Origin: Sulfurimonas sp.
GTDB taxonomy: Bacteria > Campylobacterota > Campylobacteria > Campylobacterales > Sulfurimonadaceae
Assembly (NCBI GenBank): GCA_030247515.1
Contig: JAOTSA010000008.1
Location: 1 to 38,201 of the forward strand
DNA length: 38,201 nt
Reading direction: 5' to 3'
The notes beneath the pieces were generated by a model. That model had not been told where the DNA came from. It searched no databases and saw only the letters and a list, made by a program, of their open reading frames with translations. The position numbers were made by a program, and so were the translations under genes. This document shows positions 33,572 through 38,067 of this stretch, in pieces (position 1 is the first letter of the stretch; each line of letters opens with the position of its first letter).

Positions 33572-34228
33572 GTGCTTCTAAAAGACACCCTTTCCTCTTT
33601 ACATTTTTTCTCATCTTTAGCCGATGAAGAGTTGGATTTGCTTGCCTCTTTCTCTTCAGTAAGCTCTTATACTAACGGGTATGTTATTCATTATGAAAAG
33701 CAAGAGAGTGGTCTGCTTCTTTTTTTATTGGAGGGAGTTGCAAAAGCATACAAAATCGACAAACACAATAACGAAATATTTCTACACTACATCTATGCGC
33801 CCTCTTTAATCTCCGATATCTCTAACTTAAAAAAAGAGAAACTTCTCTTATTTTCAAATGTTTCACTTGTTGAGGACTCTAAAGTTCTTGCAATAGATTA
33901 TAAAAAATTTAAAGAGTTTTTTTTGGCAAAAGGGCATCTTTGCATAGAGTTTGTCAACGAAATGATAGGAAAATCCAACCAACTGCAATCTCTCATCAAC
34001 AGAGAGTTTATCTTTAGTTCAGTTGCAAAAGTGGCAATGATGCTTCATAATGATTTGGATATGTTCAATTCGCTCAAAAGAAGTGAAATCTCTTTGATTT
34101 TGAATATTCAACCAGAGACGCTCTCAAGAGTTCTCAACAGGCTAAAGAGAGACGATATCATTGACTCTAAAAATGCAAAGATTATTGTTTTAAACAAAGA
34201 AGCTCTATTATCTGTTTATGAGGAGTAG
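33572..34228 (+). CDS. Crp/Fnr-family transcriptional regulator (likely N-oxide/redox regulator of nosZ)
   Basis: A 218-residue regulator. Residues 1-120 form a cNMP-binding-type beta barrel (LHFFSSLADEELDLLASFSSV; GYVIHYEKQESGLLLFLLEGVAKAYKI). A dimerisation helix and a C-terminal winged helix follow (LKRSEISLILNIQPETLSRVLNRLKRDDII), with the E-x2-SR recognition pattern seen in DNA-binding helices of Fnr, Nnr and Dnr. It has a single Cys, so it cannot be a classical oxygen-sensing iron-sulfur Fnr. A haem- or NO-dependent Dnr/Nss-like mode is possible. The GTG at 33572 has a poor Shine-Dalgarno sequence. It sits two genes upstream of nosZ, which carries a matching palindrome. Confidence 0.88.
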   Translation: MLLKDTLSSLHFFSSLADEELDLLASFSSVSSYTNGYVIHYEKQESGLLLFLLEGVAKAYKIDKHNNEIFLHYIYAPSLISDISNLKKEKLLLFSNVSLVEDSKVLAIDYKKFKEFFLAKGHLCIEFVNEMIGKSNQLQSLINREFIFSSVAKVAMMLHNDLDMFNSLKRSEISLILNIQPETLSRVLNRLKRDDIIDSKNAKIIVLNKEALLSVYEE

Positions 34229-34231
34229 TAT

Positions 34232-35167
34232 ATGAGAAAAATTAAAATTACGGGTGCGTTTATCTTTCTTTTTTCACTGTTACTGGCATTTATCTTTAAC
34301 TATACCTCAAAAAACAGTGCATATCACAATAACGAAATTGCTGTAATGAATGCACAAAAGAACTTCACACAAGATATCTCTAAAAATATCTTTTACTTTT
34401 ACAAGCACCCTGATAGCTCCTCAAAAGCGTTGGATGACTCTATAAAACTATTTTTAGAGAGTATGAACAACCAAGAAAGAGGACTGCATGAAAATGAAAA
34501 AATAAGAAAACTTTGGAACGATTTTTACCTTCATGTGCAACGTTTTAGAGACCAGATAAAAAACAAAACCATCTATTCAAATATTCTTCTTGAAAAAGAG
34601 GTCAAAGAAATCTACGAAATTAATCTTGCTCTTATGGTTGCAAGCGACAACTTTATCAATGATGCGATTACCCGTTTCAACCAAGAACAAGCTAGATATG
34701 TTGTGGTTCAGTATCTGCTGTTTTTTATCTTAGTATCGCTTCTTCTCTACATCTTTACACAACTGCAAAGCGTCATTGATTTTATTCAAAAATTTCTATT
34801 TGCTTCCAAAAAGATACTCTCTCAAACATCTATCAAAACACTTCAGCCTATTGAGATAGAGGAGAGCAACCACGATATTTTTGAAGCAAAAGAGAATTTT
34901 AATGAGCTTGTACAAAAAATTAACGACTCTATAGCCTCTTCAACACAATCAATGGAACATACCTATATATCTTTGGAGATAGTAGAACAAAATATAGAAA
35001 ATTTGGTAGAACTCATCTACACGATGCATGAGGATTCCAGAGACAAAGAGCTTAAGAAGAAAGAGGATGCTATCATCCAATCTTTTGAAGAATTAAGCAT
35101 TTCAGTCAAGAAACTAAAAAATCTTAAAAGCGATTTGGATAGTCTGATTACACATACAAATCCTTAA
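34232..35167 (+). CDS. Orphan two-helix membrane sensor-like protein
   Basis: A 311-residue protein. A helix at about 8-25 and a second at about 160-182 bracket a periplasmic region of roughly 135 residues, mostly helical (AVMNAQKNFTQDISKNIFYF; EVKEIYEINLALMVASDNFI). This resembles the PilJ/NarX-type sensor domain. After the second helix comes a coiled-coil region to the end, but no histidine kinase, methyl-accepting or GGDEF output domain. It starts three bases after the regulator, with GAGGAG inside that gene, so the two are coupled. It may signal by partner binding. Confidence 0.7.
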   Translation: MRKIKITGAFIFLFSLLLAFIFNYTSKNSAYHNNEIAVMNAQKNFTQDISKNIFYFYKHPDSSSKALDDSIKLFLESMNNQERGLHENEKIRKLWNDFYLHVQRFRDQIKNKTIYSNILLEKEVKEIYEINLALMVASDNFINDAITRFNQEQARYVVVQYLLFFILVSLLLYIFTQLQSVIDFIQKFLFASKKILSQTSIKTLQPIEIEESNHDIFEAKENFNELVQKINDSIASSTQSMEHTYISLEIVEQNIENLVELIYTMHEDSRDKELKKKEDAIIQSFEELSISVKKLKNLKSDLDSLITHTNP

Positions 35168-35184: not shown

Positions 35185-35208
35185 AAAATTTGACCAGTGT
35201 CAAATTTT
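35185..35208 (+). promoter_or_regulatory. Perfect Fnr/Nnr-type palindrome upstream of nosZ
   Basis: AAAATTTGAC (35185-35194), spacer CAGT and its exact reverse complement (35199-35208) form a 10+4+10 palindrome. The core TTGAC-N4-GTCAA is a variant of the Fnr/Nnr box TTGAT-N4-ATCAA. Its centre is 41.5 bases upstream of the start expected from the TAATAT at 35226-35231, the class II activator position. Confidence 0.8.
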
Positions 35209-35225
35209 AACCCTCTCCTTTTTTC

Positions 35226-35231
35226 TAATAT
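35226..35231 (+). promoter_or_regulatory. -10 box for nosZ
   Basis: TAATAT lies 57 bases before the nosZ ATG. There is no -35, as expected for an activator-dependent promoter. Confidence 0.6.
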
Positions 35232-35287
35232 ACATTTATGATTTGAGTACTATCATAAAAACCTCAAACTAATTTAAGGAGAGAAAA

Positions 35288-37888
35288 ATGGCTAAGCATT
35301 CCAAAAAACTTGTTTCGCTTCTTGTTGGTGCTTCTGTAGCTGCGTCTTTTGCGCATGCGGCTGATGGTGAACTACAACAAGTAATGAAAGCAAGAGGACT
35401 CAGTGAAATCGATGTGGTTCGTGCTGCAAAGACTTATAATCCTTCGGGCGTTAAGGATGAGTTCGTTGTATTTAGTTCAGCTGGACAAGCTGGGCAAGTA
35501 ATCGTCTATGGTGTTCCATCGATGAGAATTTTAAAGTACATCGGTGTATTTACTCCAGAACCTTGGCAGGGATATGGATTTGACGAGGAGTCTAAAAAGG
35601 TTCTAAGACAAGGAAATGTCAGAGGAAGAGAGATTAACTGGGGAGATACACACCACCCTGCTCTCTCAGAAAAAGATGGAAAATATGATGGAAAATGGCT
35701 TGCTATCAACGACAAGGCAAACCCTCGTATCGCTATCATCGACTTAGCTGACTTTGAAACAAAACAAATCGTTGTAAACCCTGTTTTTAAATCTGCTCAC
35801 GGTGGAGCGTTCTTTACACAAAACAGTGATTACATCATTGAAGCGTGTCAGTATGCAGCTCCTTTTGACAACAATTATCATCCGATTGAAGACTATAAAG
35901 AGGTATATCGTGGTGGTGCTACGATGTGGAGATTTGACCCTAAAAAGGGAAGAATTAACGAAAAAGAGTCTTTCACTATCGAAATGCCTCCGTATATGCA
36001 AGATTTGAGTGACTCTGGTAAAGGCGTTTCTGATGGATGGGGCTTTACAAACTCATTTAACTCTGAGATGTACACAGGCGGAATTGAAGTTGGTATGCCA
36101 CCAAATGAAGCTGGTATGAGTAGAAATGATACTGACTTTTTACATGTTTACAACTGGAAAAAACTTGCAGAACTTGCAAAAGATTCTAAGAATGTAAAAA
36201 TCATAAATGACCACAAAGTTATCCCTATGGAAGTAGCTATCAAGCATGATGCACTTTTCTTGATTCCAGAACCAAAGTCACCGCACGGGGTTGACGTATC
36301 TCCAGATGGTGAGTACATCACGGTTTGTGGAAAGCTTGACACACACGCTTCTGTTTATAAGTGGAGCAAAATCAAAAAGCTAATTGAGAGCAAAGAGTAT
36401 GTAGGCAAAGACCCTTACGGTATCCCTATCTTAGATATGAAAAAGTCACTTCATGGACAAGCAGAGTTGGGTCTGGGGCCATTGCATAACCAATACTCAA
36501 ATGTTGATGGTGAAATCTATACTTCACTTTATGTTGACAGCCAAATTGTAAAGTGGAACTACAAAACTCTAAAAGTAATAGACAAAGTAAATGTTCACTA
36601 CAACGTTGGTCACCTTTGTGGAATGGAAGGAAAGTCTGCTGATCCTCAAGGAAAATATATCATTTCGCTTAACAAACTTGCGATTGACAGATTCCAAAAT
36701 GTTGGACCACTACATCCACAAAACCACCAGTTAATCGATATTAGCGGTAAAAAGATGGACTTACTTGTTGACATGCCTCTGCCACTTGGAGAGCCACACC
36801 AAGCAGTTGCGATTCGTGCAGAAAAGCTTCACGGACACGTAAGATACACAATGGGTACAAACTCAAGAGAAGATAAAATTCACGAGGGTAAAACACTTGC
36901 AGGTCAAGAGAGAATTGAGAGAAAAGGCAATAAAGTTTCAGTATATGCAACTATGGTTCGTTCTCACATAAATCCTGAGAGAATTACAGTAAACAAGGGC
37001 GATGAAGTAACTTTCTACATCACAAACCTTGAGCGTGCGCAAGATGAGGCACACGGCTTTACAGTTGACCACTATAACGTACACGCTTCGTTAGAGCCTG
37101 GTAAAACTTCAAGTATCAAGTTTACAGCTGATATTGAGGGTGTTTTCCCTTACTACTGTACAGAGTTTTGTTCTGCACTTCACTTAGAGATGATGGGTTA
37201 CCTAACAGTAAAAGACCCAAACAAAAAGTATGAGAGCACTCAAAAGAAAAAGATGCAGACAATGTCTCCTGAGCAACTAAAAGCTGAATACGACAAAACT
37301 GTTGCAACAAATGCTGCAACTGACGCTGTTATCCAGTCTGTTGTGAAGTTCTTAAAAGAGAACAAATATGAGAAACATAAAGTTGTTGCAGATCTTGTAA
37401 CTGACGCTATGGATCAATATGGCAAGATACCTGAGCAAAAGAAACTCTCTGATGCGGCTGTAAAAGCTGGCGATATGGAAAAAGCAATTCTATTTGAGAA
37501 CATGATTTGGCAGTATATGGTTAAAACTGCGGATGTTGGTATCAGAGCAAAAGATGCGCTTGTAAGGCTTATCGCTACAAAACAGTCAGCTGCTGCGGCT
37601 GCTGGTGAAAAAGCATTTGGCGAGGGTGGATGTGGCGGATGTCACGTTATCGGTAAAGTTTCTTCTGGTCCAGACTTGACTGGTGTTCTTCAAAGACATG
37701 GAGAAAACGGCGAGAAATGGGTAAAAGACTTCATCATGAATCCTGAAAAAATGTACACAGAACCTTATGTTAAAGGTATGATTGACTACTTCAACCTAAG
37801 AATGCCAAACCAGCATATGGATGAAAAAGAGACTAAAAACATCATCGAATACCTAAAATGGGTAGATCAAAACGCAAATCTCTTCTAA
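35288..37888 (+). CDS. nosZ: Nitrous oxide reductase, clade II with C-terminal cytochrome c
   Basis: NosZ reduces N2O to N2 in the periplasm, the last step of denitrification. Residues 1-24 are a Sec signal peptide without twin arginines, which marks clade II. The seven-bladed propeller holding the CuZ site starts with DTHHPALS (His122, His123). The cupredoxin CuA site is YYCTEFCSALHLEMMGY, with Cys624, Cys628, His632 and Met635. A helical linker (about 650-770) leads to a cytochrome c domain with CGGCH (Cys782, Cys785, His786) and probably Met839. At 866 residues the fusion has the length of the Campylobacterota enzymes. A strong AAGGAG precedes its ATG, and an Fnr-type box controls it. Confidence 0.98.
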   Translation: MAKHSKKLVSLLVGASVAASFAHAADGELQQVMKARGLSEIDVVRAAKTYNPSGVKDEFVVFSSAGQAGQVIVYGVPSMRILKYIGVFTPEPWQGYGFDEESKKVLRQGNVRGREINWGDTHHPALSEKDGKYDGKWLAINDKANPRIAIIDLADFETKQIVVNPVFKSAHGGAFFTQNSDYIIEACQYAAPFDNNYHPIEDYKEVYRGGATMWRFDPKKGRINEKESFTIEMPPYMQDLSDSGKGVSDGWGFTNSFNSEMYTGGIEVGMPPNEAGMSRNDTDFLHVYNWKKLAELAKDSKNVKIINDHKVIPMEVAIKHDALFLIPEPKSPHGVDVSPDGEYITVCGKLDTHASVYKWSKIKKLIESKEYVGKDPYGIPILDMKKSLHGQAELGLGPLHNQYSNVDGEIYTSLYVDSQIVKWNYKTLKVIDKVNVHYNVGHLCGMEGKSADPQGKYIISLNKLAIDRFQNVGPLHPQNHQLIDISGKKMDLLVDMPLPLGEPHQAVAIRAEKLHGHVRYTMGTNSREDKIHEGKTLAGQERIERKGNKVSVYATMVRSHINPERITVNKGDEVTFYITNLERAQDEAHGFTVDHYNVHASLEPGKTSSIKFTADIEGVFPYYCTEFCSALHLEMMGYLTVKDPNKKYESTQKKKMQTMSPEQLKAEYDKTVATNAATDAVIQSVVKFLKENKYEKHKVVADLVTDAMDQYGKIPEQKKLSDAAVKAGDMEKAILFENMIWQYMVKTADVGIRAKDALVRLIATKQSAAAAAGEKAFGEGGCGGCHVIGKVSSGPDLTGVLQRHGENGEKWVKDFIMNPEKMYTEPYVKGMIDYFNLRMPNQHMDEKETKNIIEYLKWVDQNANLF

Positions 37889-38007: not shown

Positions 38008-38017
38008 GGGGGGGGGG
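38008..38017 (+). repeat. Homopolymeric G10 tract
   Basis: Ten consecutive G bases in the 310-base spacer after nosZ. Poly-G tracts slip readily during replication in Campylobacterota. Here it lies outside any gene. Confidence 0.9.
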
Positions 38018-38067
38018 TGGTAGGGACATTTGTCCCTACCACTAAAACGGACAAGTTCGTTTTAGTG
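38017..38067 (+). other. Two adjacent, overlapping hairpins in the nosZ-to-next-gene spacer
   Basis: GTGGTAGGGAC (38017-38027) pairs exactly with 38032-38042. CACTAAAACG (38040-38049) pairs exactly with CGTTTTAGTG (38058-38067). They share the bases 38040-38042, so the two full stems compete. The first is GC-rich; neither is followed by a U-tract. Confidence 0.7.

What the first reader, a model, noticed from the sequence alone, without database searches (positions are those of the whole stretch)
35185..35231. Perfect TTGAC-N4-GTCAA palindrome at exact class II position before nosZ
The 10+4+10 palindrome and the TAATAT -10 are spaced so that the centre falls 41.5 bases from the predicted start. 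That is the geometry of Fnr/Nnr/Dnr-activated promoters. The half-site GTCAA differs from the usual ATCAA, and the Crp/Fnr gene two genes upstream has only one Cys. A lineage-specific N-oxide regulator with its own half-site is therefore plausible.
Basis: partly seen in the sequence, partly recalled or inferred. Interest (0 to 1): 0.6.

Follow-up and report, generated by a model that had tools for sequence, protein, structure and literature searches.

The report
Conserved Crp/Fnr switch before nosZ
A short mirror-image DNA sequence in front of the nitrous-oxide reductase gene of a Sulfurimonas bacterium is a real, strongly conserved docking site for a Crp/Fnr-type gene activator, and the neighbouring genes suggest that the activator works with a membrane sensor related to known nitrate sensors.

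Summary
A perfect 10+4+10 palindrome (AAAATTTGAC-CAGT-GTCAAATTTT, 35185-35208) lies before clade II nosZ, with TAATAT at 35226-35231, so its centre is at -41.5 from the predicted start. It is not chance. TTGAC-N4-GTCAA occurs once in the 2.06 Mb genome. In 40 related nosZ loci a TAnnAT stands at the same spacing although the distance to the ATG varies. Across 100 Sulfurimonas genomes the box plus spaced -10 gives 86 hits against 0 for the reversed control; of 31 classified, 24 precede nosZ and 4 napA. The nor operon instead carries TTGAT/ATCAA or half-and-half boxes (30 of 30, never double GTCAA).

The GTCAA form goes with an upstream Crp/Fnr gene (33572-34228) and its partner membrane gene (34232-35167). 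A paralogous pair precedes napA; its membrane protein is a PilJ/NarX-type nitrate sensor without a kinase. The nos copy has N-x-x-K where nitrate sensors have G-x-x-R.

Best reading: a class II Nss/Dnr-like operator, most likely used by the adjacent regulator. Site and geometry are well supported; regulator identity is inferred; the signal is unknown. It is a new variant of a known kind: the motif is known from HcpR, and Nss control of nos from Wolinella.

The parts
35185..35208 (.). Operator: perfect 10+4+10 palindrome AAAATTTGAC-CAGT-GTCAAATTTT, core TTGAC-N4-GTCAA at 35190-35203
   Evidence: sequence; for rarity; for conservation of the core in 40 nosZ loci
35226..35231 (+). -10 element TAATAT, first T 29.5 bases from the palindrome centre; predicted transcription start at 35238 (centre at -41.5)
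   Evidence: TA and AT of TAnnAT at this spacing in 39-40 of 40 loci; 86 genus-wide composite hits against 0 for the reversed control
35276..35281 (+). Ribosome-binding site AAGGAG of nosZ
   Evidence: read from sequence
35288..37888 (+). nosZ, clade II Sec-dependent nitrous-oxide reductase with C-terminal cytochrome c domain
   Evidence: TIGR04246 896 bits (cut-off 625), Cytochrom_C PF00034
33572..34228 (+). Crp/Fnr-family regulator (one Cys, recognition helix IQPETLSRVLNRL), most likely the protein that binds the palindrome
   Evidence: PF13545 and PF00027 above cut-off; orthologue next to nosZ in 29 of 33 GTCAA-type loci and 0 of 11 ATCAA/mixed loci; best solved-structure match DNR 3dkw
34232..35167 (+). 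Membrane protein, kinase-less homologue of PilJ/NarQ-type sensors, 3 bases after the regulator gene; nitrate motif G-x-x-R replaced by N40-x-x-K43
   Evidence: hhalign to the nap-linked PilJ protein E 3.5e-40; alignments; AlphaFold model, top fold matches NarQ fragments, prob 1.00 but E about 0.06

Best explanation
The palindrome is the operator of a class II, activator-dependent nosZ promoter. A dimer of a Crp/Fnr-family regulator of the Nss/Dnr type binds TTGAC-N4-GTCAA centred at -41.5, overlapping the place of a -35 element, and recruits RNA polymerase to the TAATAT -10. The regulator is most likely the one encoded two genes upstream (33572-34228). Shown here: the site, its conservation, the fixed geometry, the link to nosZ and napA, the co-occurrence with this regulator lineage. 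Inferred: binding, activation rather than repression, and the signal, which probably reports availability of a nitrogen oxide, possibly through the co-encoded PilJ/NarQ-like membrane protein (34232-35167).
For: Perfect palindrome, unique in the genome. In 40 nosZ loci TTGAC/GTCAA is followed by TAnnAT at +29.5 in 39-40, with the ATG mostly 80 to 150 bases away. Genus-wide composite motif 86 against 0 control; 24 of 31 fetched hits precede nosZ and 4 napA. napA: 27 of 28 assessable loci have a class II site, 19 exact double-GTCAA and 4 more with one mismatch in the outer bases; own napA has ATGACCCAAATCAA with TATTAT at the same spacing. GTCAA type co-occurs with the local Crp: 29/33 against 0/11, Fisher p 1.8e-7. 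nos-linked and nap-linked Crp proteins share the helix IQP-[EAS]-TLSRVL and group together. In N. labii the exact TTGA-N6-TCAA boxes start 48-49 bases before the start sites of napA, norE and nosB (PMC11539149), which agrees with class II geometry.
Against: No binding, footprint, start-site or expression data. Fisher p ignores relatedness of the loci. Four GTCAA-type nosZ loci (L034, L039, L065, L086) have no such regulator within the stretch searched, so another protein must serve there. The nap-linked paralogue has nearly the same recognition helix, so it may bind the nosZ box too. In N. labii nosZ transcript correlated negatively with two Crp/Fnr genes (PMC11539149).
Confidence: 0.82

Rival explanations
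1. The box is a real Crp/Fnr class II operator, but its main ligand is the nap-linked paralogue (NssA-like, contig C1 of the genome) or both regulators bind it, so that nosZ belongs to a shared nap/nos regulon.
For: nap-linked and nos-linked Crp share the recognition helix; napA carries the same double-GTCAA box in most genomes; four GTCAA-type nosZ loci lack the nos-linked regulator; in W. succinogenes NssA, NssB and NssC act on the same reductases (PMC6682613).
Against: The nos-linked pair is kept directly before nosZ in 29 of 33 GTCAA loci; spacers differ: nosZ mostly TTGAC-CTTA/CATA-GTCAA, napA mostly TTGAC-ATAA-GTCAA; in this genome the napA box has drifted to ATGAC/ATCAA.
Confidence: 0.35
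2. The palindrome is an intrinsic terminator of the upstream regulator-membrane gene operon.
For: It lies 18 bases after the stop codon and folds as a 10-bp hairpin of -7.0 kcal/mol.
Against: Paired arms outside TTGAC are not conserved (5-6 bp in 18 of 39 loci) and no locus has a T-rich tail (0 of 39); the terminator scan does not list it; the -10 spacing would have no reason to be fixed.
Confidence: 0.03
3. It is a repressor operator of the same family: binding at -41.5 blocks RNA polymerase.
For: Negative correlation of nosZ with Crp/Fnr transcripts in N. labii (PMC11539149).
Against: The site takes the place of the -35 element, as at class II activated promoters, and the same layout precedes napA, nor and ahbAB; Nss proteins act as activators in W. 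succinogenes (PMC6682613).
Confidence: 0.08

Closest known systems
Nss regulators of Campylobacterota (NssR of C. jejuni; NssA, NssB, NssC of W. succinogenes)
   Same: Crp/Fnr family, same phylum, control of nap and nos genes, box of the TTGA-N6-TCAA kind (PMC11539149, PMC6682613)
   Different: Published boxes are TTAAC-N4-GTTAA (NssR) or the unspecific TTGA-N6-TCAA; here nosZ and napA use double GTCAA while nor uses ATCAA or mixed boxes. Orthology to NssA/B/C not tested (no named sequences at hand).
DNR/NNR of denitrifying proteobacteria
   Same: Class II Crp/Fnr activation of nos and nor; PDB 3dkw DNR is the best solved relative; no FNR-type Cys cluster
   Different: DNR box is TTGAT-N4-ATCAA; weak sequence similarity only
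HcpR of deltaproteobacteria and some cyanobacteria
   Same: Predicted motif TTGAC-N4-GTCAA, identical half-site (PMC1274295)
   Different: Targets hcp/frdX (or norB), not nosZ or napA; different bacterial groups
NarX/NarQ and McpN (PilJ nitrate-sensor domains)
   Same: The nap-linked membrane protein has PilJ PF13675 (E 1.8e-17) and the G-x-x-R P-box; the nos-linked one is its full-length homologue
   Different: No histidine kinase or chemotaxis output found; encoded beside a Crp/Fnr gene; nos copy has N-x-x-K instead of G-x-x-R

Membership tests
Class II Crp/Fnr-activated promoter | Palindromic Crp/Fnr box centred near -41.5 | tested here: met
   Spacing to TAnnAT fixed in 39-40 of 40 nosZ loci; start site itself not mapped
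Class II Crp/Fnr-activated promoter | Regulator-dependent transcription | not testable with these tools
   needs deletion or in vitro transcription
FNR (O2-sensing) | Four Cys ligands for a [4Fe-4S] cluster | tested here: not met
   One Cys in 33572-34228; 0-5 Cys in relatives, count not conserved
FNR/DNR box | TTGAT-N4-ATCAA | tested here: not met
   Double GTCAA at nosZ; the ATCAA form exists elsewhere in the same genome
Nss family | Crp/Fnr protein of Campylobacterota with Dnr-type DNA-binding domain acting on N-oxide respiration genes | tested here: inconclusive
   Crp/Fnr domains and nap/nos linkage met; direct orthology to NssA/B/C not tested
HcpR | TTGAC-N4-GTCAA before hcp/frdX | tested here: not met
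   Same box, but tied to nosZ and napA; the only exact box in this genome is at nosZ
PilJ/NarX-type nitrate sensor (34232-35167) | Four-helix periplasmic domain with G-x-x-R | tested here: not met
   Full-length homology to a PilJ protein and NarQ-like fold match, but G and R are N40 and K43, K invariant in 31 sequences

The most novel reading that the evidence does not exclude
Sulfurimonas controls nitrate and nitrous-oxide respiration by duplicated two-gene modules in which a periplasmic PilJ/NarQ-like sensor without kinase hands its signal to a Crp/Fnr regulator. The nap copy reads nitrate; the nos copy, with N-x-x-K in place of G-x-x-R, reads another signal, possibly linked to nitrous oxide. 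That would be a new way of coupling a membrane sensor to a Crp/Fnr protein.
Probability: 0.3. Interest if true: 0.82.

Novelty: new variant of a known kind. Interest (0 to 1): 0.55.

Why it matters
Clade II NosZ bacteria are important N2O sinks, and how Nss-type regulators sense nitrate, NO and N2O is stated to be open (PMC8139620). The half-site split (GTCAA at nosZ and napA, ATCAA or mixed at nor) suggests that one cell sorts its N-oxide genes into sub-regulons. The regulator-plus-membrane-sensor pairs give a direct, testable proposal for the sensing step.

Tried and rejected
Terminator reading: rejected. Search of the genome with one mismatch: 58 sites against 28 in the reversed control, not informative alone. 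A genus-wide count of the bare 14-mer: 199 against 106 across 100 genomes, which needed the spaced -10 to become clean. One residue of the recognition helix explaining TTGAC against TTGAT (position 188 equivalent, N or K): rejected, both occur with GTCAA sites. Glu181: also not the key, since most nos-linked regulators have Ala or Ser there with the same box. Pfam on the nos-linked membrane proteins gave no convincing family; the homology needed profile-profile comparison. Literature searches for a PilJ protein beside a Crp/Fnr gene in this group found nothing; subscription papers, among them Kern and Simon 2016, could not be read. The class II box seen behind nosZ in many relatives, probably the nosB promoter, was not found in the last 300 bases of the window.

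Full report
What is there. The stretch lies in a Sulfurimonas genome (closest nosZ relatives 89-96% identical, labelled Sulfurimonas or Campylobacterota; 2.06 Mb in 185 contigs). Gene order is ftsA, ftsZ, a small secreted protein, a Crp/Fnr regulator (33572-34228), a membrane protein (34232-35167), nosZ (35288-37888). The 120-base gap before nosZ holds AAAATTTGAC-CAGT-GTCAAATTTT at 35185-35208 and TAATAT at 35226-35231. Three perfect 10+4+10 repeats occur in the window against 0.08 expected; TTGAC-N4-GTCAA occurs once in the genome.

Conservation. Eighty relatives of NosZ with their upstream DNA were fetched. Sixty have a Crp/Fnr-like box, counting the window; 40 of these have double GTCAA. 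In those 40 the consensus is ATAAT-TTGACC(T)(T)AGTCAA-ATTAT, the outer arms being A+T-rich, and TAnnAT stands with its first T 29.5 bases from the centre (T, A, A, T in 39, 39, 39 and 40 of 40), although the start codon lies at very different distances. A fixed distance to the -10 and a variable distance to the ATG is what a class II promoter predicts and what a terminator or a coding constraint does not. Terminator features are missing.

Which genes. Across 100 genomes of the genus the bare 14-mer occurs 199 times against 106 for the reversed pattern; with the -10 at the right distance 86 against 0 (sums). Of 31 such sites in fetched loci 24 precede nosZ, 4 precede napA, 3 other genes. A direct look at napA: of 28 assessable loci from other genomes, 27 have a class II box, 19 exact double GTCAA, 4 with both C and G but one outer mismatch, 3 mixed, 1 ATCAA. 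norCB: 30 of 30 have a class II box, 15 TTGAT/ATCAA, 15 half-and-half, none double GTCAA. In the window's own genome class II TTGAT-N4-ATCAA boxes precede nor, the siroheme decarboxylase ahbAB gene, a transport/NnrS cluster, a multihaem cytochrome and a cupredoxin-like gene, and napA has ATGACCCAAATCAA. So the cell has at least two box dialects, and nosZ has the purer GTCAA form.

The regulator. Its orthologue stands directly before the membrane gene and nosZ in 29 of 33 GTCAA-type loci with enough upstream DNA and in none of 11 ATCAA or mixed loci (Fisher p 1.8e-7, not corrected for relatedness). Two Sulfurovaceae loci with ATCAA-type or mixed boxes carry a different Crp/Fnr gene at that place. 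The napA genes have a paralogous regulator with nearly the same recognition helix, and nos- and nap-linked proteins form neighbouring groups in a tree (support for the nos group alone is low, 0.39). The protein has one Cys, hence no FNR cluster. DNR is the nearest solved structure.

The partner. The gene between regulator and nosZ encodes a predicted membrane protein, almost entirely helical, with no kinase domain. The nap-linked pair has a membrane protein with a PilJ domain (E 1.8e-17) whose profile finds PilJ and McpN, a proven nitrate sensor (PMC6381276). nos- and nap-linked proteins align over their whole length (E 3.5e-40). The nap form keeps N-I-A/V-G-K-Q-R-M, with the nitrate-binding G-x-x-R of NarX/NarQ (PMC8199190); the nos form has N-E-Q-K-x-F, so G becomes N40 and R becomes K43, K invariant in 31 sequences. 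The AlphaFold model (pLDDT 79.5, pTM 0.50) matches NarQ fragments best (prob 1.00 but E about 0.06, all-helical); one of them is NarQ R50K, described as an apo state. This suggests that the nos copy does not read nitrate in the NarQ way. That the membrane protein signals to the Crp/Fnr protein is inference from gene pairing only.

Comparison and verdict. Control of nos by Nss-type Crp/Fnr proteins is known in Wolinella (PMC6682613), TTGA-N6-TCAA boxes before nap, nor and nosB are reported in Nitrosophilus (PMC11539149), and TTGAC-N4-GTCAA is the predicted HcpR motif in other groups (PMC1274295). The finding is therefore a new variant of a known kind: a GTCAA sub-dialect found mainly at nosZ and napA, paired with sensor-like membrane proteins. 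The observation and its class II reading are sound; the regulator assignment is likely; the signal is open.

Noticed in passing
window 34232-35167; L115:451-1458: Paralogous kinase-less PilJ/NarQ-like membrane proteins encoded directly after Crp/Fnr genes before nosZ and before napA; nitrate motif kept in the nap copy, replaced by N-x-x-K in the nos copy.
   Followed up: yes
window 38008-38065: Between nosZ and the next gene: a run of about 10 G followed by two strong hairpins (one -18 kcal/mol); could end or process the nosZ transcript, and the G run could slip.
   Followed up: no
window 33572-34228 and orthologues: Recognition-helix Glu181 is kept in the window's clade but is Ala or Ser in most nos-linked regulators, with no change of the TTGAC box, against the published Glu181 correlation.
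   Followed up: partly
L129:3138-3151, L130:2991-3004, L120:17-30, L121:2993-3006 (own genome): Class II TTGAT-N4-ATCAA boxes before ahbAB, a transport/NnrS cluster, a multihaem cytochrome and a cupredoxin-like gene: a candidate second N-oxide regulon.
   Followed up: partly
L063, L081, L084, L085 about 2.65 kb after the nosZ start: A further class II TTGAC-N4-GTCAA box after nosZ, probably the nosB promoter; other loci have mixed or ATCAA boxes there.
   Followed up: partly
L078, L080, L091, L068: nosZ boxes with TTGCC on the left arm (TTGCCCTAAGTCAA and similar) in Campylobacteraceae/Arcobacter-labelled genomes; three of the four keep the nos-linked regulator (L068 has too little upstream DNA to tell).
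   Followed up: no
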